Source: Paenibacillus sp. FSL R7-0273
GTDB taxonomy: Bacteria > Bacillota > Bacilli > Paenibacillales > Paenibacillaceae
DNA length: 64,000 bases
Direction: 5' to 3'
Assembly (NCBI RefSeq): GCF_000758625.1
Contig: NZ_CP009283.1
Location: forward strand, 6,248,501-6,312,500
The position numbers and the translations under genes were made by a program. The notes under the pieces are model-generated. The model was not told the DNA's origin. It saw nothing but the letters and a program-made list of their open reading frames with translations, and did not search any database. Shown in pieces: positions 28,648-62,481 of the stretch; the first letter of the stretch is position 1; each line of letters begins with the position of its first letter.

Positions 28648-29606
28648 CAGCTATTTCCCCCGGCCGCCGCAAGCAGCCCCTGGTCCAGCCGTTCCAGTGA
28701 ATCGAACAGCAGCTTCATGAACGCTTCGCGGTCAACACCGGTCAGCACCTGCACATTCGGCTGGCGGTCCGGCTTCTTTCTGCGGTCAGCCACGGTCATG
28801 CCGCGGGTCAGCTTACCCTCGGTTTCCACCGTCACATAGAGCTGCTCTGACTGGAACAGCTCCGGGTGCACCAGCCAGGCTACGGCGCATGGATCATGCA
28901 GCGCGTTGCCGACGTAGCCCATTTTTTTGCCATAGATTGAGTAGAAATCCAGCAGCTCCCCGACCATTACAGACACCGGGCCCTTCTGCTTCAGCTCAAG
29001 GATTTCCTCCTCGAAAATCGCCGCCTTATCCGTCACATCCAGACCGCTCATCACAATAGGAATACCCGATTCATAGACGATCCGTGCAGCTTCCGGGTCT
29101 ACAAAGATATTGAATTCAGCCGTGCTGGTCACATTCCCGTAAGCCAGGCCCCCGCCCATCAGCGAGATTTCCTTAATCTTGCTCTTTACTTCCGGGTAAG
29201 CGGTGATTAGCAGTGCAATATTGGTTAACGGTGCCAGCGGCACCAGTGTAACCGGCTTCTCCGATGCGCGGATAAGCCCGAGCATGAATTCAACCGCACC
29301 CTGCTCCACCGGCTTGAACCTGCTGGCCGGCAGCACCGGGCCGTCCATCCCGGATTCTCCGTGCGCTTCCTCTCCCGTCACCAGCTTGCCGAACAGCGGT
29401 CCGGCTGCCCCTTTGGCAACAGGGATATCCGCATTAACGAAGCTGAGCACCTTCAGGGCGTTATCCGTTATTTTATCAAGAATCTGGTTACCGCCTACCG
29501 TTGTAATGCCCCGGATTTCCAGCTCCTCCGGATGCGCCAGCGCCAGCAGAATCGCAATCGCGTCATCATGCCCCGGGTCACAGTCAATAATTATGGGTCT
29601 TGGCAT
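28647..29606 (-). CDS. Inosine/uridine-preferring nucleoside hydrolase
   Basis: A 319-residue enzyme with the calcium-binding N-terminal motif IIIDCDPGHDDAIAI and the later VPLAPLTNIALL and NIFVDPEAA segments of the nucleoside hydrolase family. It splits ribonucleosides into base and ribose in the cytoplasm. ATG 29606 follows GGGGGAG at seven bases. It lies between a BMP-type nucleoside importer and the glycohydrolase gene, so it should act on imported nucleosides and release free purine bases. Confidence 0.94.
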   Translation of the reverse strand: MPRPIIIDCDPGHDDAIAILLALAHPEELEIRGITTVGGNQILDKITDNALKVLSFVNADIPVAKGAAGPLFGKLVTGEEAHGESGMDGPVLPASRFKPVEQGAVEFMLGLIRASEKPVTLVPLAPLTNIALLITAYPEVKSKIKEISLMGGGLAYGNVTSTAEFNIFVDPEAARIVYESGIPIVMSGLDVTDKAAIFEEEILELKQKGPVSVMVGELLDFYSIYGKKMGYVGNALHDPCAVAWLVHPELFQSEQLYVTVETEGKLTRGMTVADRRKKPDRQPNVQVLTGVDREAFMKLLFDSLERLDQGLLAAAGGNS

Positions 29607-29665
29607 CGTTGTTCTCCCCCTTATGTCTTTCTCAGCAGCCAATCCTTGCCTGAAGCAGCTCTCCG

Positions 29666-30604
29666 CTACTTCACCACAGGAGCTTTAACCTTCTTGTTCT
29701 TCTTCCGGGTCTCTGAGACCGCATAGATGACCAGACCGATCACAGTTGCCACATAAGGCAGCGTAGCGATCAGCTCAGCCGGAATTTTCAGCACCTGAAG
29801 CGCATTGGACAATGCATCGGCTGCTCCGAACAGCAGCGAGGTCAGCGCCGTCCCGATCGTTGTGCTGCGGCCCATGGATTCTGCGGCAATCGCGATCCAG
29901 CCCCGGCCGGCGATCATATCACGCGTGAACAGTGACAGATAGCCCATAGACATGTAAGCTCCGCCCAGGCTGGCAAAAAATCCGCTGAGCAGCAGCGCAG
30001 TATACTGAATCCGGACTACACTGACCCCGACCGACTGGGCGGCATGCGGGTTCTCGCCGACTGAACGGATACGCAGTCCAAGCGGTGTGCGGTTCAGCAG
30101 ATAATACACGACCAGTACAGCCAGAATGGAGACGTAGGTCAGAATGTGGTGCCCTGACAGAATAGGCCCAAGCACCGGAATATCCTTCAGCAGCGGAATC
30201 TGCACATTTGGCAGCACTTTACTGGCCAGAGAGGTCGAGGACCCCTTGTCTCCGCTAAGCAGATACAGGATGAACACTGTACCGCCTGAGGCGAACATGT
30301 TGATTGCAACCCCGCCGAGAATAATATGCGTCTTAAATTTCAGGGTAAAAAAGGCCAGCACGCCGGCAATCAGTGTTCCCGACATCACCGCGCCAAGCAG
30401 TCCAACCCAGGCACTCTGGGTATACGCGCTGACAATGACCCCGGCCAGGGCCGACACCAGCATGATCCCTTCCATCCCGATATTAATAATGCCGGCCCGG
30501 TTGGAAATCAGCGCCCCCAGTGCAGCGAACAGAATAGGTGTGGTTACACGCAGCAGCGAGAAGGCAAAGTCCGTCGTAAAAATAACATCCAGCAGACTGT
30601 TCAT
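29666..30604 (-). CDS. BMP-type nucleoside ABC transporter permease (NupQ-like)
   Basis: A 312-residue membrane protein of the branched-chain/ribose-type permease family, with eight or more hydrophobic segments and the glycine-rich loop VGENPHAAQSVGVSV near the cytoplasmic side. The start overlaps the stop of the preceding permease by four bases. With the gene upstream it forms the heteromeric channel of a guanosine/purine nucleoside importer. Confidence 0.91.
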   Translation of the reverse strand: MNSLLDVIFTTDFAFSLLRVTTPILFAALGALISNRAGIINIGMEGIMLVSALAGVIVSAYTQSAWVGLLGAVMSGTLIAGVLAFFTLKFKTHIILGGVAINMFASGGTVFILYLLSGDKGSSTSLASKVLPNVQIPLLKDIPVLGPILSGHHILTYVSILAVLVVYYLLNRTPLGLRIRSVGENPHAAQSVGVSVVRIQYTALLLSGFFASLGGAYMSMGYLSLFTRDMIAGRGWIAIAAESMGRSTTIGTALTSLLFGAADALSNALQVLKIPAELIATLPYVATVIGLVIYAVSETRKKNKKVKAPVVK

Positions 30605-31642
30605 GCGTTTGCTTTCGCCTCCTTCAGCAGCATCCGGTTTTTCCAGAATTTCAGGAATTGCTCAGCGGAGATCAGCAGGATAATAACCGCCTGGATGATC
30701 GAGATCATCTCGGAGGGCACATCCGACAGACGGGCCATCATATCGGCGCCGATGCGGATGTAAGCCAGGAACAGGGCTGAGCCGATAACGGATATCGGAT
30801 TGTTTTTGGCCAGCATCGCCACCAGTGCACCGTCAAGACCGTACCCGGGCAGAGATGCCCACTGGAACCGGTTGTACATTCCCAATACTTCGACTGATCC
30901 GCCCATTCCGGCGATAAAGCCGGCAATCAGATGGACCAGAATGATTACTTTTGCAGTCTTCATACCCGAGTAGCGGGCAAAATCACGGTTCACACCGGTC
31001 ATCCGCAGCTCATAGCCCCATTTGGTCCGGTACAGGAACAGGTGGGCCAGAACGATCATTACCAGTACAATAATCAGACCGGTGTGGATGCGTGTGCCGG
31101 TGAAGATTTTGCTCAGCTGGGCTGTCTCTTGAAACTTGTAGGATACATTGGCAAAAGCCTTTGCATCGCGCAGATGATAGTTAAGCAGATAGAGTCCGAT
31201 TCCGAACAAAATATTGTTGAACATCAGTGAAGTGACCAGCTCGTTGGCGTTCCACTTGGCTTTGAGAATACCCGGGATCGCCGACAGCAGCGCTCCGACA
31301 ATTGAACCTGCCGCAATCGCTACGATTGGATGAAACCAGCTGTTCAGGCTCAGGTGGATGGCCAGTACAGAAGCCACTACGCCGGAGAAATAGAAGATAC
31401 CTTCTGCCCCGAGGTTGAACATATTCGCCCGGAACAGCAGGGACACGGCAAGACCGGTGAACATCAGCGGAATGGCCATTTCGATCACGTTGCCGATATG
31501 CCCCTTGGTGGAAATAGGCTCCCACAGAAAAATACCTATGGTCTTAAGCGGCTGGTCGCTGACGAGCGAAATAATGATAAAGGCGATGGCCAGCGCAATC
31601 AGTATGACCGCCGCCGTCCGGATCACCTCAAAATATTTGACT

Positions 31643-31650
<8 letters not shown>
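30601..31650 (-). CDS. BMP-type nucleoside ABC transporter permease (NupP-like)
   Basis: A 349-residue hydrophobic protein of the same permease family, with MFNLGAEGIFYFSGV and the loop MTGVNRDFARYSGMK. It overlaps the ATPase gene upstream by eight bases and the second permease gene downstream by four, a tightly coupled order typical of nupOPQ clusters. Confidence 0.91.
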
Positions 31651-33205
<1,555 letters not shown>

Positions 33206-33241
33206 GGGTTATCAACGCCTTTCAACTAGACTGGTTTTCTG

Positions 33242-33290
33242 CAAAAATAGGCAGCTGGAATTCTTCTTGGCTGAAGGAATCCCAACTGCA
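33242..33290 (-). terminator. Intra-operon attenuator-like hairpin after the binding-protein gene
   Basis: On the minus strand GCAGTTGGGATTC and GAATTCCAGCTGC form a 13-base-pair stem (two wobble pairs), then CTATTTTTGC. It lies between the binding-protein gene and the ATPase gene and may let most transcripts stop after the first gene, giving excess receptor. Confidence 0.65.
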
Positions 33291-33324
33291 GGAGATACGG
33301 CGTACCGGTTAGTGTTTAATTTAA

Positions 33325-34464
33325 TTAAGGCTTAACAGCATTACGGATCGCTTCAACCTCTGAAGTTTCCATGCCCATTGCGTTGTCTACTGTGATTTCC
33401 TTGTTGATCAGCTTCTGCTTCACTTCTTCAACCTTGGCCTGCAGATCTGCAGGGAATACGCTGGTGTAGATGTCATTTTCGGCAATGCCTACGCCGTCTT
33501 CAACAAAGCCGAGGACATCGCGTTTGCCCATTTCAAGTGTACCGTCCTGGAGCTTAGTCACAGCGCCCAGAATGGCACTGTCGATTTTTTTGATTGCAGA
33601 GGTGATGATCAGGTTTGCTTTTTCACTGTCTGTATCTTTAAGCAGCAGTGCCTGGTCGGAATCGACGCCGATGGCATACTTTGTCTTTTCTTTTGCAGCA
33701 TCGAAGATACCAAGGCCTGTACCGCCGGCTACGTTAAAAATAATGTCCACTCCGGAGTTGTACTGAATCAGCGACAATTCCTTGCCTTTGGCAGGGTTAA
33801 CGAAATCGCCCGCGTAGGACACGGCCACTTTTACATCAGGATCAACATATTGCGCACCCTGAATGTAGCCGACCAGGAACGCGTTGATACCAGGGATATC
33901 CATACCGCCGACAAAGCCGATCACATTATCCGGATTCGCATTCGGCATATCCGATTGTGTAGCCAGTGCTGCAGTTGCGCCGGCCAGGAAGGAGACTTCA
34001 TTAGTGGAGTAAGACATGTTATACATATTAGCTGGTGCTTCTTCGATGTCTGTATCGTAGTTGATGAACTTTTTATCCGGATTCGCTTCTGCGGTCATAT
34101 TGAACATTTCAGTAATTTCCGATCCGCCGGAGATCACAACATCCCAGTCTTCAGCAGCGATATCGTTGAAGCTAGGCTCCCATTTGGTTTTGTCAGTGCC
34201 CATCTCGATTACTTTGGTCTCCGCGCCCAGCTCTGTCTTCACTTTCTGCAGGCCGTTGTTGGCAGCATCGAAGAAGGATTTATCTCCAAGCGTTCCCGGA
34301 ATCAGCAGTACAACCTTCAGCTTGTCGCCTGCACCGGCGTTTGTGCTGTCTGCTGCATTGCTGCCGGTATCCGCCGCGTTTCCATTGTTAGCTGTGTTGT
34401 TTCCGCAAGCAGTGACGAGTACCATTACCATAAGCAGCAATAATGTAAGAACATTCTTTTTCAT
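33325..34464 (-). CDS. BMP/NupN-family nucleoside-binding lipoprotein
   Basis: A 379-residue lipoprotein: signal peptide, lipobox VTAC near residue 20, then an Asn/Ala-rich linker and the BMP fold (VVLLIPGTLGDKSFFDAAN, VISGGSEITEMF, VIGFVGGMDIPGINAFL). Members bind purine nucleosides at the cell surface. It is the first gene of the minus-strand operon with one ATPase, two permeases, nucleoside hydrolase and glycohydrolase. Confidence 0.93.
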   Translation of the reverse strand: MKKNVLTLLLLMVMVLVTACGNNTANNGNAADTGSNAADSTNAGAGDKLKVVLLIPGTLGDKSFFDAANNGLQKVKTELGAETKVIEMGTDKTKWEPSFNDIAAEDWDVVISGGSEITEMFNMTAEANPDKKFINYDTDIEEAPANMYNMSYSTNEVSFLAGATAALATQSDMPNANPDNVIGFVGGMDIPGINAFLVGYIQGAQYVDPDVKVAVSYAGDFVNPAKGKELSLIQYNSGVDIIFNVAGGTGLGIFDAAKEKTKYAIGVDSDQALLLKDTDSEKANLIITSAIKKIDSAILGAVTKLQDGTLEMGKRDVLGFVEDGVGIAENDIYTSVFPADLQAKVEEVKQKLINKEITVDNAMGMETSEVEAIRNAVKP

Positions 34465-34791: not shown

Positions 34792-35547
34792 ATGGATCGA
34801 GTCCTATATATTGTAAATGCTGAGCATGAAGCGGACACCCATATCCCGCGCCATCAGCATGAATGCTTCGAGCTGGTTTATTACATTCACGGGCTCGGCA
34901 CCTGCAGCATCGGGCAGCGCAGCTATCACTTCCGGCCGCACTCCTTTGCGCTGATCCCGCCTAATTTTAAGCATGATGAGAATCACCAGCCCCGCTCCGA
35001 GGTGCTGTTCGTCGGCTTCCATTGCGAGAACCCGGCAATCAGTACATTGTCCGGCGTATTTGAAGATGACAAGGAGCATACCGTGCTGCAGACGCTGGTG
35101 CGGATGAACGGGGAATTCAAGCGCAAGCGTGAGGGCTTCTCCGAGCTTTTAAATTTGCAGATGAGCGAAATTACGGTACACCTGCAGCGGCTGCTGGGCG
35201 GCTCCGGCTTCCAGTCCCCGGTACAGGACCAGATGCAGTATGTTCTCAACTATATGGAGGAGCATTACCGTCATAAGCTGTCAGTCCAGTCACTGGCGGA
35301 GATGTCCGGGTACAGCTACGACCGGTTCCGGCATTTGTTTAAGGAGCGCTTTGGCGAGTCGCCCCACCGTTATCTTTTACTAAAACGCATCAATTATGCC
35401 AAATCCCTCCTGCTGCATACCCAGATGCATATTTCCGAGGTATCTGCCACAGCCGGATTCGTGAATGACGCGCAGTTCTGCAATATGTTCAAAAGAGAGG
35501 TTGGACTCTCGCCCCGGACCTTCCGCGTTCGCAGTAAAGTTATATAA
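34792..35547 (+). CDS. AraC-family transcriptional regulator with cupin domain
   Basis: A 251-residue protein. The N-terminal half is a cupin-like ligand domain (HIPRHQHECFELVYYIHGLG then FALIPPNFKHDE); the C-terminal half has two AraC helix-turn-helix motifs (SVQSLAEMSGYSYDRFRHLF and HISEVSATAGFVNDAQFCNM). AGGAGG precedes ATG 34792. It is divergent from the nucleoside import operon and is the best candidate for its regulator; its ligand is unknown. Confidence 0.9.
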   Translation: MDRVLYIVNAEHEADTHIPRHQHECFELVYYIHGLGTCSIGQRSYHFRPHSFALIPPNFKHDENHQPRSEVLFVGFHCENPAISTLSGVFEDDKEHTVLQTLVRMNGEFKRKREGFSELLNLQMSEITVHLQRLLGGSGFQSPVQDQMQYVLNYMEEHYRHKLSVQSLAEMSGYSYDRFRHLFKERFGESPHRYLLLKRINYAKSLLLHTQMHISEVSATAGFVNDAQFCNMFKREVGLSPRTFRVRSKVI

Positions 35548-36239: not shown

Positions 36240-36297
36240 GTTATACACAAGTGAAAACATGGATAATCAAGCTCTCTGCTAAAGGAGATTGCCGCTT

Positions 36298-36852
36298 ATG
36301 CGAATTGTAGTAGCTATCACGGGAGCCAGCGGCTCCATCTACGGATATTCCCTGATCCGCAGCCTGCACCAGCTTGGTGTGGAGGTCTATATCATCGCTA
36401 CCGGTGCCGGGGAAAATGTGCTCGGTTACGAATGCGGTATCAAGCTGCAGGAGCTGGAGCAGTACGGAACGGTGCTGTCTAACACAGACCTGTTCGCTCC
36501 CGTAGCCAGCGGTTCATTCAAAACGGACGGGATGGTCATCATCCCCTGCTCGATGAATACGCTTGGCGCGATCGCGAACGGCATGGGTGACACCCTGCTG
36601 AACCGGGCTGCCAGCGTCGTACTGAAGGAACGGCGCCGTCTGGTCATCGTCCCGCGTGAGACACCGCTGCATCTGATCCATCTGGAGAATATGCTGCGGC
36701 TGGCCCGGGCGGGTGCAGACATTGTGCCCGCCTCTCCCGGCTTCTATAATCACCCGACCGAAATCTGGGAGCTGGTCAATTTTATGAATGCCAGGGTGCT
36801 GGATGCGTTCGGCATTGAGCACCCGCTGATGAAAAGATGGGGGGAAAGCTAA
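36298..36852 (+). CDS. ubiX: UbiX-family flavin prenyltransferase
   Basis: A 184-residue flavoprotein with the N-terminal loop VVAITGASGSIYGYSLI, the middle IIPCSMNTLGAIANGMGD and the late PRETPLHLIHLENM and PASPGFYNHP motifs of flavin prenyltransferases. These make prenylated FMN, the cofactor of UbiD decarboxylases, from FMN and dimethylallyl phosphate. AAGGAG lies ten bases before ATG 36298. The stop overlaps the UbiD start as TAATG, so cofactor enzyme and client enzyme are coupled. Confidence 0.94.
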   Translation: MRIVVAITGASGSIYGYSLIRSLHQLGVEVYIIATGAGENVLGYECGIKLQELEQYGTVLSNTDLFAPVASGSFKTDGMVIIPCSMNTLGAIANGMGDTLLNRAASVVLKERRRLVIVPRETPLHLIHLENMLRLARAGADIVPASPGFYNHPTEIWELVNFMNARVLDAFGIEHPLMKRWGES

Positions 36853-38195
36853 TGGCAGCCGTCAATATCAGGCAACTGCTTCACCGCTGGGAGCCTGGCG
36901 GAGAGCTGCTGCGGATCCGCCGCGAGGTTGACCCACGCTTCGAGCTTGGCGCTGTGGCCAAGGCTGTCCGCGGCAGGCAGCCGCTGCTGTTCGAGAAGGT
37001 CAAAGGCTACACCGGACCGATGGCCGTTGGCCTCGGCGGCTCCAAGGAGCTGATTGCTGACAGCATGGATATGGCTCCGGAGGAGCTGCTGCCCAGGCTG
37101 ATAGCTGCGATCGTCCAGCCTACACCAACCCGGCTGGTGCAGCAGGCTCCGGTGCAGGAGCAGGTCATCACCAGCCGGATCAGTCTGAAGGAGCTTTTCC
37201 CGGTCTGTACGTACCATGCGGAGGACAGCGGCGCTTATTACGTCTCCGGCGTAATGGTCGTCAAGGGCGAGGACGGCCGCAAGCTTTACACCTCCATCCG
37301 GCGGATGCAGCTGCTGGACGGGAACCGGACCGGCATCCTGATCTCATCGCCGGAGCTGTTCCAGCAGTATAGGGATTCCGAGGCGCGCGGCGAGCCGCTG
37401 GAGTGTGCCTTTATGTTCGGGGTGGTCCCGGCAGTGGTGCTGGCTTCGCAGATCAGCACCCATCTCTTCCACACCGACAAGCTGGAGGTGGCCTCCACCC
37501 TGCTCGGCCAGCCGCTGGAGATCGTCCGGTGCCGGACGGTCGATCTGGAGGTGCTGGCGGAGGCCGAGGTTGTGTTCGAGGGCCGGATTTTGCCCGGGGT
37601 GCGTCAGCCGGAGGGTCCGTTCGGCGAGCTGGGCGGCTATTACGGGCTGCGGACAGAGCAGCCGGTGGTCGAAATCTCGGCCGTCACCCACCGCAGCGGG
37701 CCTATCTGGCAGACCATTCTGCCGGCCAGCTATGAGGAGAAGCTGCCGATGGCTATCGCCCGGGAGGTCGCATTGCTCGGCTCGGTCCGCCAGGTCGTGC
37801 CGGGGGTGCAGGCCGTGCACATCACCATGGGCGGAGTCGGACGCTATCATGCCGTCCTCCAGATCCGCAAGGTTCAGGAGGGCGACGGGAAAACAGCGCT
37901 GCTGGCCGCTTTTGCCGGGGATAAGGATCTCAAGCATGCCGTGGTGGTCGATGAGGATGTCAATCTGCTGGAACCGCTCGATGTCGAGTGGGCCATCGCC
38001 ACCCGGGTACAGGCCGACCTCGACCTGTTCATTGTGCCGGGAGCCAAAGGCTCACCGCTCGAGCCCTCGCACAATCTGCGCGGCGTATCCGCCAAAATGG
38101 GCATCGACGCCACCTGCCCCCTCGCCCACCGGGAACAATACCGGAGAACCCATATTCCGGGGCAGGATGAAATCCGGCTGGCGGATTATTTGTAG
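36852..38195 (+). CDS. ubiD: UbiD-family prenylated-FMN decarboxylase
   Basis: A 447-residue enzyme of the UbiD family. It shows EVDPRFELGAVAKA near the N terminus, the metal and cofactor region (YYVSGVMVV, TSIRRMQLL), the acidic triad region EGPFGELGGYYG and a late VPGAKGSPLEPSH. Such enzymes reversibly decarboxylate aromatic, heteroaromatic or unsaturated acids. The start overlaps the ubiX stop. The substrate is not evident; its position 1.1 kb before the microcompartment locus raises the option of an N-heterocyclic carboxylate, which is inference. Confidence 0.92.
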   Translation: MAAVNIRQLLHRWEPGGELLRIRREVDPRFELGAVAKAVRGRQPLLFEKVKGYTGPMAVGLGGSKELIADSMDMAPEELLPRLIAAIVQPTPTRLVQQAPVQEQVITSRISLKELFPVCTYHAEDSGAYYVSGVMVVKGEDGRKLYTSIRRMQLLDGNRTGILISSPELFQQYRDSEARGEPLECAFMFGVVPAVVLASQISTHLFHTDKLEVASTLLGQPLEIVRCRTVDLEVLAEAEVVFEGRILPGVRQPEGPFGELGGYYGLRTEQPVVEISAVTHRSGPIWQTILPASYEEKLPMAIAREVALLGSVRQVVPGVQAVHITMGGVGRYHAVLQIRKVQEGDGKTALLAAFAGDKDLKHAVVVDEDVNLLEPLDVEWAIATRVQADLDLFIVPGAKGSPLEPSHNLRGVSAKMGIDATCPLAHREQYRRTHIPGQDEIRLADYL

Positions 38196-39296: not shown

Positions 39297-39563
39297 ATGC
39301 AAGCAATCGGCTTGATTGAAACACGCGGCCTGACCCCGGCTCTGGAAGCGCTGGATGCCATGTGCAAAGCCGCCAATGTGCGGATGGCCGGCTTCAAGCG
39401 GGTCGGCTCCGGCCTGATTACCGTTATCGTCGAAGGGGATGTCGCAGCAGTAACTGCCGCTGTGGATGCCGGCCTTGCTGCTTATTCAAAAACCGGCGGA
39501 CAGTTAATGTCATCTAATGTTATTCCGCGCCCGCATGCCGATCTCGCCAGAATGCTCCTTTAA
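39297..39563 (+). CDS. BMC-H shell protein 1 (PduA/EutM-like)
   Basis: An 88-residue single-domain microcompartment shell protein of canonical length. It opens MQAIGLIETRGL, has the pore loop RVGSGL in the usual place, then TVIVEGDVAAVTAAVDAG and VIPRPHADL. Six copies form the hexagonal tile whose central pore lets small molecules through; a GSG pore is the ordinary polar type. AGGAGGTG precedes the ATG. It is first in an operon that reaches at least to 42660 and probably to 45916. Confidence 0.97.
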   Translation: MQAIGLIETRGLTPALEALDAMCKAANVRMAGFKRVGSGLITVIVEGDVAAVTAAVDAGLAAYSKTGGQLMSSNVIPRPHADLARMLL

Positions 39564-39603
39564 CCCGCAAGCAGCATTGAAGTCATCAGGGAGGTGATTA
39601 CCC

Positions 39604-40689
39604 TTGTCCAGCTTTATGAAAGATGTTGTGGCCGAAGTGCTGCAGCGGAACCGCACTCCGGCTCCGGCAGGTCCGGCAACTCCTGTAGCATCTGCCGTCA
39701 GCTGCACTGCTGACAGCAAAAAAAACTGCACGCATACCTGCTCCACTCCAGGGAATTGCCCTAAGCCGGAGCTAGCCCTTCCGCTTAAACGGATCAATTA
39801 CCAGAAGGAGCAGGCAGCCAGGCGGCTGGCCTCAATTGCCGCCGAAGCAGCTGCCGCTATCGGCAATGTGCAGCAGCGCCCCCCAGGCGGCGCCAGCTTA
39901 GCTAGTGCCGCTGGAACAGCAGGACCTTCGCTGCCGGCAGCAGACTCGACCTTCCCGCCTGTCAATGAGCCGCAGGGGCAGGGACGCCAGTTCGCAGAGC
40001 AGTACCTGTCTCCGCTGCTCCAGCGCACGTTAGCCCGGCCGGATCAGCAGAATAACAGCTCTCCGGGCAGCGCGCCCGCGCGATCCTTCGTCCCGGAAGA
40101 AGCGCAGGACCCGCGGGAGCCTGTCCGCCTCCCTGCTGCAGACATGGAGGTCTGGCTGTTCCCCCTCATCCGCGATGATCTCCGCCCGCTGCTCGGCAGC
40201 CCGGGCCAGAACTACAGCGCAGCCGGGGTCATCAGCGCTCCCTCCTGCCATCCCGGCCAGCTGTTCGCCGCCGAAGAGCTGCTCCCGCAGGACTCCGGCC
40301 TGGAGGCCGATATCAACTGGAGCGCGGACGGCGGCAGCTTTGAGCTTAAGCTGTTCGGCCTGGATCACCAGCTGGTCGCGGATAAGCTTAAACAGCTTAC
40401 CGCCCGGATGCAGGACGGTGCTAATTCAGCCGTCCGGGTCTGGATCAGCCGGGAGCCCGGCCGGCTGCTGCGCCGCTATTTCAGCGGCGGTCCGCAGGAA
40501 GCCATTGCGGTAGTAGCAGGCTCCTCCCGCTGGAACAGCATTGGCAGCGCCGAGCAGTGGCTGCAGCGCAATCCCGGCTCCGGCCTGCGCTTACGTCTAG
40601 AGCGCGGCTACTGCATTCTTAGCGGCACAGCAGAGCAGATATCAGCGTCCGCGCCGGGGCTTACCAACTTATCTGCTCCAAGCAGATGA
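39604..40689 (+). CDS. Microcompartment-locus protein of unknown family, with targeting-like N terminus and Cys cluster
   Basis: A 361-residue protein I do not recognise. Residues 2-16 (SSFMKDVVAEVLQRN) form a short amphipathic helix followed by a Pro/Ala linker, which is how cargo-targeting peptides of microcompartments look. Next comes a cysteine cluster, C-x7-C-x3-C-x5-C near residues 34-52, that could hold metal or an iron-sulphur centre. A charged helix (NYQKEQAARRLASIAAEAAA) and a long Pro/Ser/Ala-rich linker lead to a folded C-terminal region from about 185. Start is TTG 39604 after GGGAGG. It lies between two shell genes and may be a scaffold or redox cargo. Confidence 0.8.
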   Translation: MSSFMKDVVAEVLQRNRTPAPAGPATPVASAVSCTADSKKNCTHTCSTPGNCPKPELALPLKRINYQKEQAARRLASIAAEAAAAIGNVQQRPPGGASLASAAGTAGPSLPAADSTFPPVNEPQGQGRQFAEQYLSPLLQRTLARPDQQNNSSPGSAPARSFVPEEAQDPREPVRLPAADMEVWLFPLIRDDLRPLLGSPGQNYSAAGVISAPSCHPGQLFAAEELLPQDSGLEADINWSADGGSFELKLFGLDHQLVADKLKQLTARMQDGANSAVRVWISREPGRLLRRYFSGGPQEAIAVVAGSSRWNSIGSAEQWLQRNPGSGLRLRLERGYCILSGTAEQISASAPGLTNLSAPSR

Positions 40690-40737
40690 GCTTAACCACT
40701 GCCAGACAACGGATCAACGTACAAGGAGGCACTTTTC

Positions 40738-41226
40738 ATGCAAGCACTTGGTTTAATCGAGACGCTGGGGTTCACCACTGCCGTCTCTGCGGCAGATGCT
40801 GCACTCAAAGCAGCGGATGTTCAGCTCGTCGCCGTTGAGAAGGTAATCGGAGTCGGTGGCTCACTGGGTGTCACTCTGCATTTCAGCGGCGATGTCGCTG
40901 CTGTAACAGCATCCGTTGAAGCCGGCAAAGCAGAGGGCCAGCGGATTGGTGCAGTGGTATCCGCCCATGTCATTGCCAAGGCGCACAGTGATGTGACCGG
41001 CAAGATACTTGGCAATTACCTGCTGCCTGAGGATAGGACTGCACGGGCTGCTGATGGTGTTTCGGTTATCAAGACTACCACTACTACTACAACCGCTCCT
41101 ATTGCTTCTATTCTTCCTGCCGATTCTGCTGCTGCTTCTGCTTCTTCTGCTCCTGTCTCTTCTACCGCCCTGGCTGAAGCAGACGGAGCATCAAAACCAA
41201 AGAATACAGATGATTCACCGGATTAA
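40738..41226 (+). CDS. BMC-H shell protein 2 with extended pore loop and C-terminal tail
   Basis: A 162-residue protein. Residues 1-92 are a BMC domain (MQALGLIETLGF, SGDVAAVTASVEAG, SAHVIAKAHSDV). The pore loop is longer than normal: VIGVGGSLG replaces the usual KIGSG. Residues about 100-162 form a low-complexity tail rich in Thr, Ala and Ser with an acidic end. Codon use in the tail is strikingly pyrimidine-rich (TCT, GCT, ACT), unlike the neighbours. Tails of this kind in EutK- or PduK-like shell proteins may face the lumen or bind other parts. AAGGAGG precedes the ATG. Confidence 0.93.
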   Translation: MQALGLIETLGFTTAVSAADAALKAADVQLVAVEKVIGVGGSLGVTLHFSGDVAAVTASVEAGKAEGQRIGAVVSAHVIAKAHSDVTGKILGNYLLPEDRTARAADGVSVIKTTTTTTTAPIASILPADSAAASASSAPVSSTALAEADGASKPKNTDDSPD

Positions 41227-41243
41227 CCTAATTAAATCAGTTT

Positions 41244-41300
41244 CGTTTCTGCAATTTAAATATTAATTTAATCGTTTCTGAAATTTAAATCTTAATTTAA
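41244..41300. repeat. 29-bp AT-rich direct repeat before shell gene 3
   Basis: CGTTTCTG(C/A)AATTTAAAT(A/C)TTAATTTAA occurs twice head to tail, filling the gap between shell genes 2 and 3 up to the ribosome site. It is a recent duplication and could carry an internal promoter. Confidence 0.7.
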
Positions 41301-41314
41301 CGGAGGTTATTCAC

Positions 41315-41596
41315 ATGGGAGAATCACTCGGCTTGATCGAAACAAAAGGTCTGGTAGGCGCAATTGAAGCGGCGGATGCAATGGTGAAGGCAGCTAATGT
41401 GGAGATTTGCGGCTACGAAAAAATCGGTTTCGGTCTCGTAACCGTAATGGTCCGGGGCGATGTCGGTGCAGTAAAGGCCGCAACCGATGCAGGCGCCGCC
41501 GCTGCCAAGCGTGTCGGGGAGCTGGTGTCGGTGCATGTCATTCCGCGTCCGCACAGCGAAGTTGAGCGCGCCCTACTGTCCAAGGGCATTGAATAA
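41315..41596 (+). CDS. BMC-H shell protein 3 (PduA/EutM-like, GFG pore)
   Basis: A 93-residue single-domain shell protein: [18 protein letters not shown], then the pore loop [23 protein letters not shown] and [11 protein letters not shown] phenylalanine takes the place of the small residue in the usual GSG pore, which should narrow the pore or make it more hydrophobic. GGAGG precedes the ATG. It is closest to the standard major hexamer of PduA or EutM type. Confidence 0.96.
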
Positions 41597-41604
41597 TTAA
41601 GGCC

Positions 41605-42345
41605 ATGGACAGCCGGCATAGTACGGTTGCAGCCAATACCCTGCTCAGCCTGGCCTACCGGTCCAGGGAGCAGGAGCTGAACAAGGACTTCCCCCGTGTC
41701 CTAATTCTGCTAACCGGCAATTTCATCGGTATGGAGGAAGGCTTTACCGCCATCCGCCAGCTGGAGCGTTCCAGGATGAGGCTTAAGCTTGCAGCAGATG
41801 AGCAGCTTCTCCAGAATTACACAGCTCAGCAGCTGGCGGAAAAAACAGGAATCGACGATATCGCCACCTCCGCTGCGCTCCGCTCACTTGCACCGGAGGC
41901 TGCTGATCTTCTGTTCATTCCGGTTCTCTCACTCCCCCTGCTATCCCGCTTATGTATGCTGGATGCCGGTGATCCTTATGTGGAGCTGATTATCCGCTTC
42001 ATCTGTGCAGGCAGGCCTGCCGGGACACTAACCCTGGGAGCGAACCCCGGACATTACCGCTGGGGGGAGCAAGGCCTGCTGCATGCCCCTCCCGGGCTAC
42101 AAGCAGCCCTGAAGCATAAGCTGGACGCTATCGAAGACTTCGGTATAACCCTGCTTGAGCCGGATCAGGTGAACCATTGGATTACCTCCGCACAGTCACG
42201 GCTACACAAGCAGGTGCTCACCGCAGAGGATATTCAGGACGCAGTAAGCCTTGGCCGAACGTCGATCAGACCGTCAGTCCAGGCTGTAATCACTCCGCTT
42301 GCCGCAGATCTAGCCAGACAGCATGGCATCGAGATTATCCTTTAG
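41605..42345 (+). CDS. Microcompartment-associated flavoprotein-like protein
   Basis: A 246-residue protein whose N-terminal half has a Rossmann-like pattern (RVLILLTGNFIGMEEGF, LLFIPVLSLPLLSRL), and whose end (ITPLAADLARQHGIEI) recalls flavoproteins found in several microcompartment operons. The assignment to the UbiX/HFCD-type flavoprotein group is tentative; no cofactor motif is decisive. It starts eight bases after shell gene 3 with a weak ribosome site, so it depends on coupling. It may supply flavin or reducing power, or be a structural accessory. Confidence 0.6.
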   Translation: MDSRHSTVAANTLLSLAYRSREQELNKDFPRVLILLTGNFIGMEEGFTAIRQLERSRMRLKLAADEQLLQNYTAQQLAEKTGIDDIATSAALRSLAPEAADLLFIPVLSLPLLSRLCMLDAGDPYVELIIRFICAGRPAGTLTLGANPGHYRWGEQGLLHAPPGLQAALKHKLDAIEDFGITLLEPDQVNHWITSAQSRLHKQVLTAEDIQDAVSLGRTSIRPSVQAVITPLAADLARQHGIEIIL

Positions 42346-42378
42346 ATTCAACCATCAAGTATACGAGGTGACAATCAC

Positions 42379-42660
42379 ATGAAGCTGGGAATCATTACGG
42401 GGCATGTCGTGGCAACGAGAAAAGATGACAATCTCATCGGCGCCAAGCTGCTCATCGTTCAGCCGATTCTGCCCGACCTTACAACGGCCGGTCAGCCCAT
42501 CATCGCCGTAGATACCGTAGGCGCGGGAATCGGCGAGACGATCCTTTATGCGGTGGGCAGCGTGGCCTCAAGAGCAGCACAGCAGCCGAATGCCCCGGTT
42601 GATGCCGCGATTGTCGGAATCGTGGACAGTATAGATTGCGCCAAGGCAGGAGGGATATAA
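42379..42660 (+). CDS. BMC-P vertex protein (EutN/CcmL family)
   Basis: A 93-residue pentamer-forming shell protein with the family landmarks GHVVATRKDDNLIGAKLLIV and AVDTVGAGIGETILYA. Five copies cap each corner of the icosahedral shell, so together with the BMC-H genes the locus has the minimal set for a closed compartment. GAGGTGAC precedes the ATG. Only one pentamer gene is present. Confidence 0.96.
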   Translation: MKLGIITGHVVATRKDDNLIGAKLLIVQPILPDLTTAGQPIIAVDTVGAGIGETILYAVGSVASRAAQQPNAPVDAAIVGIVDSIDCAKAGGI

Positions 42661-42663
42661 CAG

Positions 42664-44478
42664 ATGATCACTACTGAGTTAAAAGATGCCATTCACCGCC
42701 GGGGGATGATTGATGTGCTGCTCTCCGGCAGCGCTTATGCCGACCTGGTGCTGAAGGGCGGCTTCATTATCAACGTCATTACCCGGGAGATTTATCCCGG
42801 CGATGTTGCCGTTAAAGGCGACCGGATTCTGCTTGTCGGTCAGGCCGATAAGCTTATCGGGCCTGCTACAGTTGTCGAAGACGTGAGCGGCAAGTTTATA
42901 AGCCCCGGCTTCATCGATTCCCACATGCATTTTGAAAGTGCAATGCTGACGGTTACGGAGTTCTCGAAGCTGTCCATTCCTACAGGAACAACCACCCTGG
43001 TAGCCGACCCGCATGAAATCGGCAACGTCCTGGGTGTGCCCGGCATGAAAGCTATGATTGATGAGGCGCGCACCCTGCCTAACCGCGTTCTGTTCACCGT
43101 CCCTTGTCTCACTCCCGATGTGCCCGGCCTGGAAACCGCAGGCGCAGATATCACCTCCCAGGATATGCAGGACCTGCTGAGCGATGATTATGTGCAGGGC
43201 ATCGGTGAGCTGCAGGGCTTCAGCAACGTCCATCCGGTGTACAACAACGCACCTTATCTGATAGATGATCTGCTGGCTTCCGTCTCTTATGCCAAATCCA
43301 TCGGCAAAACCATTGAAGGCAACGCCCCCGGCCTGTCCGGCCCGGAGCTGGCGGCCCACATTATCTGCGGCGGAGGCCATGTCTCCTGCCACGAGACAAC
43401 AACCAAGGAAGAAATGATGGAGAAGCTGCGTTACGGGGTCAGCGTGTTCATGCGTGAGGGCTCCTCGCAGCGCAATATGGCTGAATGCATCCGCGCCATT
43501 ACCGAGGAAGGAATGGACTCCCGGCGCGCCATCCTCGTCTCCGACGATATGGTCCCTGAGGACCTGCTAAAGTACGGGCATATGAACGACATTGTCCGCC
43601 GGACGATCGCCGTAGGCATTGATCCGGTTGAAGCCATCCAGATGGTTACGATTAACCCGGCCACTCATTTCGGCTTCCAGGATATCGGACTGCTTGCTCC
43701 CGGCAAAAAAGCCGACATCGCCGTTATCAGCGATCTGGCGCAAATGACCGTTGCCCAGGTATATATCGGCGGAGTCAAACTCGCCGAGAACGGTGAACTC
43801 ACCCGTGACATCCCGTCTTACATTTATCCCGAATCCGTCAAAAAGTCGGTCAAGCGGAAACCGGTCAGGCTGGAAGATTTGCAGCTCTCCTCCGGCGGAG
43901 CACACGGCAGTGTCCGGGTCCGCGCCATCGAGGTGATCCCGGACCAGAACCTGACCGGAGCCGGCATCTACACCGCTTCAGTCAAAGACGGTGTCGTACA
44001 GCCCTCGGTCGAAAATGACCTCCTGCCCCTGCTCGTCGTCGAGCGGCATGGCCGCAGCGGCAAGATCGGTAAAACCTTTGTCCGCGGCATGAAGCTGAAG
44101 GCCGGAGCCATCGCTGAAAGCGTGGCCCACGACACCCACAACATCATTGTCACCGGCACCAATTACGCCGATATGGTAACCGCGGTCAACCGGGTTATTG
44201 CCATGGACGGCGGGATCGCAATGATTGAGGGCGGCAAGGTGGTCGGTGATCTGCCGCTGCGGATCGGCGGCCTAATGACCGACGAGCTGACCGGCAAAGA
44301 GATGAGCGCGCGAATTACCGGGCTGCATCGGCTGGCCCGTGAGGAGCTGGGCTGTACGCTGCATGTACCGTTCATGCACCTCTCCTTCCTCTCGCTCGTC
44401 ACCAGCCCGGCGTGGAAAATCACCGACATCGGCCTGATCGATGCGGATGCCTTCACGGTACTGCCGCCGCTGGCCTGA
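42664..44478 (+). CDS. ade: Adenine deaminase
   Basis: A 604-residue amidohydrolase of the AdeC family, which turns adenine into hypoxanthine and ammonia. Metal-site motifs are GFIDSHMHFES, VADPHEIGNV and GGGHVSCHETT, with the catalytic aspartate in LVSDD; the C-terminal adenine-deaminase domain follows (TGTNYADMVTAVN, GGIAMIEGGKVV). Length and domains are normal for the family. GGAGG lies ten bases before ATG 42664, four bases after the pentamer stop. Its place inside the shell operon suggests an encapsulated or compartment-linked enzyme, though no certain targeting peptide is seen. Confidence 0.94.
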   Translation: MITTELKDAIHRRGMIDVLLSGSAYADLVLKGGFIINVITREIYPGDVAVKGDRILLVGQADKLIGPATVVEDVSGKFISPGFIDSHMHFESAMLTVTEFSKLSIPTGTTTLVADPHEIGNVLGVPGMKAMIDEARTLPNRVLFTVPCLTPDVPGLETAGADITSQDMQDLLSDDYVQGIGELQGFSNVHPVYNNAPYLIDDLLASVSYAKSIGKTIEGNAPGLSGPELAAHIICGGGHVSCHETTTKEEMMEKLRYGVSVFMREGSSQRNMAECIRAITEEGMDSRRAILVSDDMVPEDLLKYGHMNDIVRRTIAVGIDPVEAIQMVTINPATHFGFQDIGLLAPGKKADIAVISDLAQMTVAQVYIGGVKLAENGELTRDIPSYIYPESVKKSVKRKPVRLEDLQLSSGGAHGSVRVRAIEVIPDQNLTGAGIYTASVKDGVVQPSVENDLLPLLVVERHGRSGKIGKTFVRGMKLKAGAIAESVAHDTHNIIVTGTNYADMVTAVNRVIAMDGGIAMIEGGKVVGDLPLRIGGLMTDELTGKEMSARITGLHRLAREELGCTLHVPFMHLSFLSLVTSPAWKITDIGLIDADAFTVLPPLA

Positions 44479-44605
44479 CCGGCAATGAGCTTTCACTGCT
44501 TACCATCTCTGCTCTAAAAGCAGCGCTTCCCCCGCCGGTAACGGAACCGGAACCGGCTTACTAAACTCATCGCATTGCCACAACAAACAAAAGGAGGCCT
44601 CTTCC

Positions 44606-45289
44606 ATGGGAATCCAGGTAATCGATCTGTCCCAGGAAATCTATCAGGGGATGCCGGTATTTCCGCCGCATCAGAAGACGATGATATTTCCAAATATGAG
44701 CCATGAAGAGAGCCGGCGGAAGCTCGGCTTCGAGTTCGCCACCAACAATCTGCTCATCAACGAGCATGGCCCGACCCACAGCGATGCCATCTATGAATAT
44801 GACCCGCAGGGGGCGACGATCGATGAGATGCCGCTGGAGTATTTTTACGGCCCGGCTATCTGCCTTGACCTCTCCCATATTTCACCGGATGCCTATATTA
44901 CCCGCAGCGATTTGGAGCTGGCACTAAGCAGAGGCTATCTTCACCTCGACAAAGGCGATATCGTGCTGCTCTACACCGGCCACTATAACCGTGCGTATGG
45001 TACCGGCGAATGGCTTACCCGCTATACAGGGCTGGATTACGGTGCGGCCGAGTGGCTGGCGAAGCAGGGCGTTGTCAACATCGGCATTGATGCACCGTCG
45101 ATTGACAATCCGCTGGACACCACCTTTGCCGGACATCTGATCTGCCGTGAATACAGGCTGACCAACACCGAGAACCTGTGCAACCTCGACCAAATCGCGC
45201 AGAAGCGCTTCCTCTACTTCGGGCTCCCGCTCAAAATCCGCAAAGGCACCGGCTCCCCCATCCGGGCTGTCGCAGTATTCATTGAATAA
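44606..45289 (+). CDS. Cyclase-family metal hydrolase (kynurenine formamidase-like) with altered metal motif
   Basis: A 227-residue protein of the cyclase family, whose members hydrolyse formamides, isatin or similar cyclic amides. The family metal motif H-x3-H-x-D-x3-H appears here as HGPTHSDAIYE: the first three ligands stay and the last histidine is glutamate. Later motifs VIDLSQEI, LLYTGHYNR and IGIDAPSID are normal. AAGGAGG precedes the ATG. It follows the adenine deaminase gene by 127 bases and precedes the DUF1989 gene by 21. A role in opening a ring or cleaving an amide is likely; the substrate is unknown. Confidence 0.85.
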   Translation: MGIQVIDLSQEIYQGMPVFPPHQKTMIFPNMSHEESRRKLGFEFATNNLLINEHGPTHSDAIYEYDPQGATIDEMPLEYFYGPAICLDLSHISPDAYITRSDLELALSRGYLHLDKGDIVLLYTGHYNRAYGTGEWLTRYTGLDYGAAEWLAKQGVVNIGIDAPSIDNPLDTTFAGHLICREYRLTNTENLCNLDQIAQKRFLYFGLPLKIRKGTGSPIRAVAVFIE

Positions 45290-45310
45290 ATAATGAAGCA
45301 GGTGAAGCAG

Positions 45311-45916
45311 ATGAGAAACGGAACGTTAATCGAGGAAATACGGGTGCCGGCTTACGAGGGCAGAAGCGCACTGGTACGAAAGGGGCAGACACTCTATATT
45401 ATCGACGTGGAGGGTAAGCAGGTCGGCGATTTTGTCTGCTTCAATGCCATGGACCCGGATGAGCACGTCTCTCCCGTTCATATGCGGGCTTCACTGAGCA
45501 GCATCCGGCTCAAAACAGGCGACGGCCTGTACAGTAACCGGCGGCAGCCGCTGATGCAGCTGACTCAGGATACGGTGGGACGGCATGACTTCTTTTTTCC
45601 GGCGTGTGATTATTACCGCTATAAGATTGATTTCGGGCTGGAGGAGCATCCGAACTGCCATGATAACCTGCAGCAGGCACTGCAGAAATATGGCCTGGGG
45701 AACAGGGAGCTGCCCGATCCGATTAACTGGTTCATGAACAATAAGCTGGACGACAATCTCGACTATATCATTGAAGAGCCGCTCTCGAGGCCCGGTGATT
45801 ATATTGCCCTCCTCGCTCTGACGGATGTGATAGTCGCCCTCTCCTCCTGCTCGCAGGATCTGGCTCCGGTCAACGGGTTCAAGGTTACGCCGCTGCTGAT
45901 GCAGATTACGGGGTAG
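45311..45916 (+). CDS. DUF1989 / urea carboxylase-associated family protein
   Basis: About 201 residues, cytoplasmic. Matches the DUF1989 family in its sequence flow: an early VRKGQTLYIIDVEGKQVGDF, a middle GLYSNRRQPLMQLTQDTVG and the late conserved SCSQDLAPVNG. Members often sit beside urea carboxylase, allantoin or other nitrogen-compound genes, and their reaction is not well settled. ATG 45311 has AGGTGA at good spacing; ATG 45293 has no ribosome site. It ends the run of genes linked to the microcompartment. Confidence 0.85.
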   Translation: MRNGTLIEEIRVPAYEGRSALVRKGQTLYIIDVEGKQVGDFVCFNAMDPDEHVSPVHMRASLSSIRLKTGDGLYSNRRQPLMQLTQDTVGRHDFFFPACDYYRYKIDFGLEEHPNCHDNLQQALQKYGLGNRELPDPINWFMNNKLDDNLDYIIEEPLSRPGDYIALLALTDVIVALSSCSQDLAPVNGFKVTPLLMQITG

Positions 45917-56835: not shown

Positions 56836-56856
56836 ATTACTCACGTTCCCTTCGGT

Positions 56857-58326: not shown

Positions 58327-58427
58327 CCCCAGGTTACAAAAGGTACAGGGCAGACACCATTCTCACACAGCCATAAATAGCCGCACATAGAACAGTAATT
58401 CTTTTCTGCACCTCTTGTAGCCTGGGG
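58327..58427 (-). ncRNA. Long structured leader before the allantoinase gene
   Basis: On the minus strand the segment begins CCCCAGGCTACAAGAGG and ends CCTTTTGTAACCTGGGG. With GGTGCAG/CTGTACC the outer helix reaches about 22 base pairs. An inner helix (GTTCT...TGTGCGGCTA against TGGCTGTGTG...AGAAT) caps it, and the two are separated by an asymmetric internal loop. It lies 55 bases upstream of the start codon. It does not match the purine, guanidine, THF or glycine riboswitch cores I know. The remainder of the gap (58428-58625) shows AT-rich sequence only. Confidence 0.5.
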
Positions 58428-62294: not shown

Positions 62295-62321
62295 GTATTG
62301 AACTGATAACTCCAAAATCAA

Positions 62322-62476: not shown

Positions 62477-62481
62477 ATAAA

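What the first reader, a model, noticed from the sequence alone, without database searches (positions are those of the whole stretch)
39297..45916. Microcompartment locus without an aldehyde core, tied to adenine deaminase and amide hydrolases
Seen: three BMC-H genes, one BMC-P gene, an unknown 361-residue protein, a flavoprotein-like protein, adenine deaminase, a cyclase-family hydrolase and DUF1989 in one plus-strand run. Known: typical metabolosomes (Pdu, Eut, glycyl-radical, choline) encode aldehyde dehydrogenase, alcohol dehydrogenase and a phosphotransacylase, often with BMC-T. None of these is in the window. Inference: this compartment handles purine or other N-heterocycle breakdown, perhaps to contain a reactive or ammonia-releasing step. 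It may fall in the class of loci described as microcompartments of unknown function; I cannot confirm that here.
Basis: partly seen in the sequence, partly recalled or inferred. Interest (0 to 1): 0.93.

Follow-up and report, generated by a model that had tools for sequence, protein, structure and literature searches.

The report
Xanthine-to-glycine bacterial microcompartment locus
These genes appear to build a protein shell and the enzymes with which a Paenibacillus takes the purine xanthine apart by hydrolysis, probably down to glycine; a related locus type has been predicted before, but the gene-by-gene chemistry proposed here can now be tested.

Summary
The gene run is real. It is a Paenibacillus variant of a shell locus already in print as BUF (2014) and as Xau, predicted xanthine utilisation (2019); an adenine compartment is unlikely. 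New here: (1) the 'unknown' 361-residue protein is a divergent BMC-T shell protein; (2) the locus is larger: UbiX/UbiD upstream, and at 56.3-58.3 kb a hydantoinase-like and an isochorismatase-family hydrolase behind a purine aptamer with the U51G change of xanthine-II riboswitches. An allB aptamer of Paenibacillus sp. DMB5, which carries this locus, was shown in print to bind xanthine; (3) the 'adenine deaminase' belongs to a clade with Asn for the GHxPG His, found elsewhere beside the cyclase and a formimidoyltransferase; (4) in Bacilli DUF1989 fills that transferase's slot. Best reading: xanthine -> 4-aminoimidazole -> 4-imidazolone -> formiminoglycine -> formylglycine -> glycine + formate. 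The substrate is well supported; step assignments are inferred and untested. Against: the hydantoinase passes the allantoinase cut-off, the genome lacks xanthine dehydrogenase, M20 is unlinked here, and three genomes have the deaminase clade without shell genes.

The parts
27253..34464 (-). Possibly associated nucleoside supply operon: BMP lipoprotein 33325-34464, ABC ATPase 31643-33205, two permeases 30601-31650 and 29666-30604, RihA-like nucleoside hydrolase 28647-29642 (below its cut-off), ADP-ribosylglycohydrolase family 27253-28647
   Evidence: relatives of the transporter (L018, L019, L022) and of RihA (L022) lie on the same strand ahead of the shell block
34792..35547 (+). AraC-type regulator
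   Evidence: relatives upstream in L004-L007 and L011-L016
35665..36039 (+). 124-residue protein without Pfam or NCBIfam match; hit in 31 of 34 loci L004-L037
36289..36852 (+). UbiX flavin prenyltransferase (TIGR00421, 222.4 > 108.9 bits)
36837..38195 (+). UbiD-family prenyl-FMN decarboxylase; proposed 4-amino-5-imidazolecarboxylate decarboxylase
   Evidence: SIRRM and EGPFGEL motifs largely kept in an alignment of 26
39297..39563 (+). BMC-H shell protein 1
39604..40689 (+). Divergent BMC-T shell protein (PduB/EtuB type) with N-terminal encapsulation-peptide-like helix
   Evidence: hhalign 98.9%, E 2.6e-17 to the BMC-T in the same slot of L120-L122; Foldseek best hits PduB 1.4e-8, EtuB, EutL
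40738..41226 (+). BMC-H shell protein 2 with long C-terminal tail
41315..41596 (+). BMC-H shell protein 3 (88-100% identical to its relatives in 44 Bacilli stretches)
41605..42345 (+). Shell-associated protein with UbiX/HFCD flavoprotein fold; N-terminal helix
   Evidence: AF2 pLDDT 86; Foldseek TvaF 7.7e-6, Hal3, UbiX; weak TIGR02536
42379..42660 (+). BMC-P vertex protein (EutN/CcmL)
42664..44478 (+). Asn-type adenine-deaminase-family hydrolase; proposed 4-aminoimidazole deaminase
44606..45289 (+). PF04199 cyclase-family hydrolase; proposed 4-imidazolonase (ring opening to formiminoglycine)
   Evidence: beside the Asn-type deaminase and a formimidoyltransferase in L125, L126, L128
45293..45916 (+). 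DUF1989 protein; proposed formiminoglycine deiminase
   Evidence: three Cys kept in an alignment of 20
56275..56844 (-). Isochorismatase-family amidohydrolase; proposed 4-ureido-5-imidazolecarboxylate amidohydrolase
   Evidence: Asp, Lys and Cys of the family (triad recalled) invariant in an alignment of 25
56857..58272 (-). Hydantoinase/allantoinase-family hydrolase; proposed xanthine amidohydrolase
58398..58501 (-). Purine riboswitch aptamer with U51G, as in xanthine-II riboswitches
   Evidence: RF00167 58.3 bits; class defined in PMC9295807

Best explanation
The locus builds a bacterial microcompartment (three BMC-H, one divergent BMC-T, one BMC-P) for hydrolytic breakdown of xanthine. Proposed route: (1) the hydantoinase-like enzyme opens xanthine to 4-ureido-5-imidazolecarboxylate; (2) the isochorismatase-family enzyme removes the carbamoyl group; (3) UbiD with its UbiX-made cofactor decarboxylates to 4-aminoimidazole; (4) the Asn-type deaminase makes 4-imidazolone; (5) the cyclase-family enzyme opens it to formiminoglycine; (6) DUF1989 removes ammonia, giving N-formylglycine, in place of the clostridial formimidoyltransferase; (7) an M20 hydrolase, unlinked in this genome, gives glycine and formate. 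A xanthine-II-type riboswitch would turn on steps 1-2; a guanine-deaminase-like enzyme behind a guanine-type riboswitch elsewhere in the genome may supply xanthine. The shell would hold the labile imidazole intermediates of steps 3-5. Shown by computation: gene content, conserved linkage, folds, riboswitch class. Shown by others: xanthine binding by a DMB5 allB aptamer. Inferred: each enzyme's reaction, which proteins are inside, and why a shell is needed.
For: Block UbiD, three BMC-H, P361, P246, BMC-P, deaminase, cyclase in 34 of 34 loci L004-L037, DUF1989 in 33, UbiX in 31. In the 20 loci L018-L037: isochorismatase 20, M20 19, hydantoinase 17, guanine/5'-deoxyadenosine-deaminase-like 15, xanthine dehydrogenase 2Fe-2S-subunit-like 14, xanthine permease 13 (names from one representative each). 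Window aptamer with U51G; the same in 6 of 6 Paenibacillus stretches where the hydantoinase start was held (window, L011, L012, L015, L017, L130). DMB5: aptamer 4124-4227, then a hydantoinase 98.5% identical to the window's. Deaminase, cyclase and formimidoyltransferase in one cluster without shell genes nearby (L125, L126, L128). Glycine riboswitch before GlyA and Lpd in L023, before Lpd in L096. Guanine-type riboswitch before the guanine-deaminase-like gene of this genome. Motifs kept. Gene order in loci such as L024 follows the proposed reaction order (noticed after the assignment).
Against: No enzyme of this locus has been assayed, as far as my searches show. The hydantoinase passes the allantoinase cut-off (380.8 > 357.85). 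The guanine-deaminase-like family passes the 5'-deoxyadenosine deaminase cut-off (729 > 522) and fails that for guanine deaminase (261 < 375). No match for the molybdenum subunit of xanthine dehydrogenase in the genome, whereas Ravcheev reports the enzyme in all Xau genomes. M20 is unlinked in this genome and not found in any of the 14 close Paenibacillus stretches L004-L017. Hydantoinase was not found in L018, L019, L022; no cyclase in the 20 kb of L120-L122. None of the 14 scanned loci outside Paenibacillus that hold the hydantoinase has a purine aptamer ahead of it. Deaminase clade without any PF00936 in G614, G589, G566. Glycine riboswitch in 2 of 21 loci; none in the window.
Confidence: 0.8

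Rival explanations
1. Allantoin route: the hydantoinase-like enzyme is a true allantoinase in an oxidative purine pathway, and the shell block acts on another nitrogen compound.
For: The hydantoinase scores above the allantoinase cut-off; PMC9295807 calls the DMB5 gene allB/pucH.
Against: No xanthine dehydrogenase molybdenum subunit in the genome. In loci such as L024 the hydantoinase sits in the same strand run between xanthine permease and isochorismatase-UbiX-UbiD-shell genes. Uricase was not searched.
Confidence: 0.1
2. One reading: adenine (or adenosine) is the substrate and the shell contains an ammonia-releasing adenine deaminase.
For: Family membership, with a score only 4 bits under the adenine deaminase cut-off; nucleoside transport and nucleoside hydrolase genes nearby.
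Against: Asn for His in 120 of 120 listed homologues (of 5652 matches; one read by eye); two His-type family members elsewhere in the genome could serve adenine. Clostridium acidurici has putative adenine deaminase genes yet does not use adenine (PMC3519856).
Confidence: 0.04
3. Same xanthine compartment, different ending: DUF1989 and M20 act on other intermediates, and formiminoglycine is handled by a formimidoyltransferase encoded elsewhere.
For: DUF1989 relatives act on carboxyguanidine and TMAO, so specificity cannot be read from the family; formimidoyltransferase was not searched in this genome; M20 is unlinked in Paenibacillus.
Against: DUF1989 follows deaminase-cyclase where L125, L126 and L128 have formimidoyltransferase in the cluster; Ravcheev found no transferase gene in two Bacillus clusters.
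Confidence: 0.25

Closest known systems
BUF / BUF1 (Axen 2014 PMC4207490; BUF1 in PMC8156839) = Xau, predicted xanthine utilisation (Ravcheev 2019 PMC6620236)
   Same: No aldehyde dehydrogenase in the locus; BMC-H, BMC-T, BMC-P; amidohydrolase, deaminase, UbiD-type carboxy-lyase, isochorismatase. Two Bacillus members are named in print.
   Different: No xanthine dehydrogenase in this genome; BMC-T so diverged that Pfam misses it; DUF1989 where other loci have formimidoyltransferase; hydantoinase and isochorismatase split off on the other strand; nucleoside ABC transporter nearby.
Xanthine-II riboswitch (PMC9295807)
   Same: Guanine-riboswitch scaffold, U51G, insertion in J3-1, upstream of an allB-like gene; DMB5 has the same arrangement.
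   Different: The paper treats the gene as allB/pucH; no microcompartment is mentioned in the parts I read (1-3 of 6).
Clostridial xanthine fermentation (Rabinowitz and Pricer 1956, as cited in PMC3519856)
   Same: Proposed intermediates from xanthine to formiminoglycine (those between are recalled).
   Different: Proposed exit by deiminase and deformylase instead of the tetrahydrofolate-dependent transferase; found in Bacilli; genes were not identified in C. acidurici.
Adenine deaminase 2, PDB 3nqb
   Same: HxH, E, HE and DD motifs align.
   Different: His of GHARGL is Asn.
PduB / EtuB BMC-T shell proteins
   Same: Fold of the 361-residue protein and, through the L120-L122 proteins, profile similarity including an N-terminal helix.
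   Different: 13-14% identity; long disordered linker.

Membership tests
BUF1 / Xau microcompartment | Shell genes without aldehyde dehydrogenase in the locus | tested here: met
   Six PF00171 matches in the genome, none in the window
[quoted passage not shown]
   BMC-T only by profile-profile and fold comparison
BUF1 / Xau microcompartment | Amidohydrolase, deaminase, carboxy-lyase, isochorismatase | tested here: met
BUF1 / Xau microcompartment | Formimidoyltransferase (absent from two Bacillus clusters in print) | tested here: inconclusive
   None among the window proteins scanned, which are not all of them; genome not searched
BUF1 / Xau microcompartment | Xanthine dehydrogenase in the genome (reported for all Xau genomes) | tested here: not met
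   PF02738: 0 matches. Hence filed as a variant, not a plain member
BUF1 / Xau microcompartment | Direct synteny with the named members Bacillus sp. 2_A_57_CT2, B. fordii, Alkaliphilus metalliredigens | not tested
   These records were not fetched; Cytobacillus and Bacillus loci of L024-L035 stand in
Xanthine-II riboswitch | Guanine-riboswitch scaffold with U51G | tested here: met
   position 51 assigned from the J2-3 motif by eye
Xanthine-II riboswitch | Insertions in J3-1 and J2-3 | tested here: inconclusive
   Two inserted bases next to J3-1 in the cmscan alignment, none shown in J2-3
Xanthine-II riboswitch | Binds xanthine | not testable with these tools
   Shown in print for a DMB5 allB aptamer, KD about 36.5 uM; that it is the aptamer in L130 is inferred from strain, gene and U51G
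Adenine deaminase (TIGR01178) | Score over curated cut-off | tested here: not met
   468.6 < 472.5, a narrow miss
Adenine deaminase (TIGR01178) | His of the GHxPG motif (metal ligand: recalled) | tested here: not met
   Asn
Carboxyguanidine deiminase / UAAP2 (TIGR03424) | Score over curated cut-off | tested here: not met
   131.5 < 284.7
Carboxyguanidine deiminase / UAAP2 (TIGR03424) | Zn-binding Cys triad of DUF1989 | tested here: met
   triad described for Tdm in PMC12560246
Aldehyde-type metabolosome | Aldehyde dehydrogenase in the locus | tested here: not met
   None in the window; PTAC and alcohol dehydrogenase not searched

The most novel reading that the evidence does not exclude
In Bacilli the classical clostridial xanthine route, whose genes were never assigned, runs in a microcompartment with a new folate-independent ending: DUF1989 deiminates formiminoglycine to formylglycine and an M20 enzyme splits it to glycine and formate. 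The Asn-type 'adenine deaminase' is 4-aminoimidazole deaminase, the cyclase 4-imidazolonase. The shell lets air-exposed bacteria handle the labile imidazoles, with a xanthine riboswitch at the entry in Paenibacillus and, in some relatives, a glycine riboswitch at the exit.
Probability: 0.45. Interest if true: 0.85.

Novelty: new variant of a known kind. Interest (0 to 1): 0.66.

Why it matters
The enzymes between xanthine and formiminoglycine were studied in clostridia in the 1950s, but their genes could not be found in the C. acidurici genome paper of 2012 (PMC3519856, passages), and in 2019 no gene of the pathway was known (PMC6620236). The locus gives one candidate gene per step, with an outside handle on the substrate (a xanthine-binding riboswitch class) and a hint at the product (glycine riboswitches in two relatives). 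It would be a microcompartment whose cargo makes no aldehyde, and it suggests that some 'adenine deaminase' and 'allantoinase' annotations in Bacillota are wrong.

Tried and rejected
Adenine as substrate: set aside on the His-to-Asn change and the neighbours; the cut-off is missed only narrowly. Recent invention in one strain: rejected, the block is shared across several Bacillota genera. 361-residue protein as a scaffold unrelated to shell proteins: given up after hhalign and Foldseek; a direct profile search of the PDB was weak (EtuB, E 0.062) and TM-scores are modest (0.36 by query, 0.52 by target). Obligate shell: rejected, of five genomes whose deaminase-clade gene has no shell gene nearby (one of them on a 5.3-kb contig) three have no PF00936 at all and two have it elsewhere; two shell-bearing genomes in the same call were positive (completeness not told).

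Literature: searches found no paper; nothing relevant in 6 listed; only Ravcheev 2019; two reviews or surveys met through repeat its prediction (passages). One search (20 papers, 8 listed) showed none on DUF1989 and formiminoglycine by title or abstract start.

Dropped rows: L038-L059 (22 of 56 loci) lack the deaminase and cyclase and were not annotated. One of the 12 genomes (G620) has the same match coordinates and size as G061 and was not fetched. L123 (5.3 kb contig) says little about shell genes. L129's deaminase, cut by its contig end, was left out of the tree and motif table.


Full report
What is there. Nine plus-strand genes at 39297-45916 encode three PF00936 BMC-H proteins, one PF03319 BMC-P, a 361-residue and a 246-residue protein without Pfam match, an adenine-deaminase-family protein, a PF04199 cyclase and a DUF1989 protein. 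Just upstream on the same strand are UbiX (222.4 bits against a cut-off of 108.9) and UbiD (301.1 against 244.85) at 36289-38195. The genome (one contig, 7.29 Mb) has three PF00936 matches, all here, and six aldehyde dehydrogenase matches, none in the window.

Conserved block. A scan of named genomes with the 246-residue family returned 56 loci. In 34 of them (L004-L037) all of UbiD, three BMC-H, P361, P246, BMC-P, deaminase and cyclase are found; DUF1989 in 33 (not L036), UbiX in 31 (not L012, L014, L016). They come from Paenibacillus, Cohnella, Thermoflavimicrobium, Virgibacillus, Cytobacillus, Sporosarcina, Neobacillus and Bacillus. The other 22 lack the deaminase and cyclase and were set aside. 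Independently, the deaminase searched in 398 Bacilli genomes matched 11 (own included) at E <= 1e-150, 6 of 145 genera. The ten other regions all hold three BMC-H genes, P246, UbiX, UbiD, cyclase and DUF1989; BMC-P was hit in 9 and P361 in 7.

Neighbours point to xanthine. In the 20 loci L018-L037, ORF clustering gave an isochorismatase-family gene in 20, an M20 hydrolase in 19, a hydantoinase/allantoinase-like gene in 17, a guanine/5'-deoxyadenosine-deaminase-like gene in 15, a xanthine dehydrogenase 2Fe-2S-subunit-like gene in 14 (below the NCBIfam cut-offs), a MocA-like gene in 14 and a xanthine permease (TIGR03173, 563 against 414 bits) in 13 (one representative each annotated). The window's own orthologues of the hydantoinase (63%) and isochorismatase lie in the window itself at 56275-58272 minus, about 10 kb from DUF1989; in L011 and L012 they lie directly behind DUF1989. 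The M20 orthologue is at 2.54 Mb, and M20 was not hit in any of the 14 close Paenibacillus stretches L004-L017.

Riboswitches. Rfam finds a purine aptamer at 58398-58501 minus, just before the hydantoinase start (58.3 bits). Its J2-3 reads GUUUCGACC, the U51G change of xanthine-II riboswitches (PMC9295807, parts 1-3 of 6 read). That paper tested an aptamer of the predicted allB gene of Paenibacillus sp. DMB5: xanthine KD about 36.5 uM, guanine rejected at 100 uM, ON-switch architecture. DMB5 is L005 here; its contig has a U51G aptamer at L130 4124-4227, then a hydantoinase 98.5% identical to the window's, then the isochorismatase, with DUF1989, cyclase and deaminase 10 kb on. That this is the tested RNA is an inference from strain, gene and sequence class. 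Six of six Paenibacillus stretches with a held hydantoinase start have the U51G form. None of the 14 scanned loci outside Paenibacillus that hold the hydantoinase has an aptamer ahead of it. Aptamers before xanthine-dehydrogenase-like or guanine-deaminase-like genes (nine, one) keep U51 as read by eye. The one in this genome precedes the guanine-deaminase-like gene at 6.01 Mb. NCBIfam would name that family 5'-deoxyadenosine deaminase (729 against 522 bits; guanine deaminase 261 against 375), so its role as xanthine supplier rests on the riboswitch. The genome has no match to the xanthine dehydrogenase molybdenum domain. In 21 loci scanned in three calls, purine aptamers were found in 3, 4 and 4 of 7, and glycine aptamers in two: in L023 before serine hydroxymethyltransferase and dihydrolipoyl dehydrogenase, right behind the pathway genes, and in L096 before a dihydrolipoyl dehydrogenase at the other end of the operon (these names by reading the sequences, not by HMM). 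These hint that glycine is the product.

The deaminase. It falls just short of the adenine deaminase cut-off (468.6 against 472.5). Against 3nqb it keeps HxH, E, HE and DD but has Asn for the His of GHARGL. Asn is kept in 21 of 21 aligned locus members, in 120 of 120 listed homologues (119 by pattern, P0077 by eye; 5652 matched, the best 120 were listed), and in 19 of 19 of a wider set, whereas 4 of 4 others, two from this genome, have His; a tree separates the groups with support 1.0. A search of 398 genomes drawn around another Bacillota genome gave 12 with the clade (one a Paenibacillus already seen). Of 11 regions fetched, L120, L121, L122, L124 and L129 have the shell block and L119 has BMC-P at its edge; L125, L127 and L128 have deaminase and cyclase with no shell gene found nearby, L126 likewise in 9 kb, L123 is too short. 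In L125, L126 and L128 a formimidoyltransferase (PF07837/PF02971) lies in the same cluster, in L125 and L128 with a cyclodeaminase. So the deaminase-cyclase pair keeps company with the enzyme that handles formiminoglycine, as expected if the two make 4-imidazolone and formiminoglycine. Whole-genome search: G614, G589 and G566 have no PF00936 at all; G449 and G613 have it elsewhere. The shell is therefore an addition to a pathway that can run without it.

DUF1989. In Bacilli it stands directly behind deaminase and cyclase, where the three loci above have formimidoyltransferase, and outside the close Paenibacillus group M20 usually follows. DUF1989 relatives are carboxyguanidine deiminases and the Zn domain of TMAO demethylase (PMC12560246 and PMC11410670, passages); the three Cys are kept in 20 of 20. 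Removal of ammonia from formiminoglycine, then deformylation, would mirror histidine breakdown through formylglutamate (recalled). This step is a prediction.

The two 'unknown' proteins. In L120-L122 the slot of the 361-residue protein holds a related protein; in L120 it has two PF00936 stretches, and the three together match EtuB and PduB. Profile comparison with the Bacilli family gives 98.9%, E 2.6e-17, over 292 columns including the N-terminal helix and the NYQ motif. AlphaFold2 (mean pLDDT 74, residues 171-360 about 84-96 per block) best matches PduB (E 1.4e-8), EtuB and EutL; a direct PDB profile search was not significant. The 246-residue protein has the UbiX/HFCD flavoprotein fold (pLDDT 86; Foldseek 7.7e-6); its role is unknown.

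Known or new. Axen 2014 (passages) defined BUF with amidohydrolases, deaminase, carboxy-lyase, isochorismatase and formiminotransferases; Ravcheev 2019 (passages and section 15) predicted anaerobic xanthine use (Xau) and named two Bacillus members without the transferase gene in the cluster; a 2021 survey calls it BUF1 and a 2024 review XAU (passages). The window is a variant: no xanthine dehydrogenase, diverged BMC-T, split operon, DUF1989 in the transferase slot. I found no experiment on this compartment. PMC3519856 (passages) states that C. acidurici has putative adenine deaminase genes but does not use adenine, and that genes for the steps to formiminoglycine could not be found; the Asn-type clade offers candidates.

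How sure. Hydrolytic xanthine breakdown as the function: about 0.8. Each step assignment rests on family chemistry and position: about 0.6-0.7 for hydantoinase, isochorismatase, UbiD, deaminase and cyclase, about 0.55 for DUF1989, lower for M20. The reason for a shell (instability of 4-aminoimidazole and 4-imidazolone in air, recalled) is the weakest part, since relatives do without it.

Noticed in passing
window 38527-38898: Tandem array of an 82-base unit, 4.5 copies, 92% matches, between UbiD and the first BMC-H gene.
   Followed up: no
window 41243-41300: 29-base unit, two copies, between the second and third BMC-H genes.
   Followed up: no
window 62216-64000: Sixteen tRNA genes and the 3' end of 23S rRNA on the minus strand; a similar cluster lies behind the locus in L011.
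   Followed up: no
window 15488-20202: GH10 and GH43 glycosidases and two ABC permeases on the minus strand.
   Followed up: no
L131 5359-6872 (G000, 6.01 Mb): Gene of a family that NCBIfam names 5'-deoxyadenosine deaminase lies behind a guanine-type riboswitch; a guanine deaminase seems more likely.
   Followed up: partly
L128 9254-15904: Two Asn-type deaminase genes flank a permease-like gene (by reading) and a cyclase gene, followed by formimidoyltransferase and cyclodeaminase.
   Followed up: no
L120 9684-10493: Actin/Hsp70-fold protein (FtsA, MreB, weak EutA hits) within the shell block of L120-L122; no gene stands in that slot in L018-L037.
   Followed up: no
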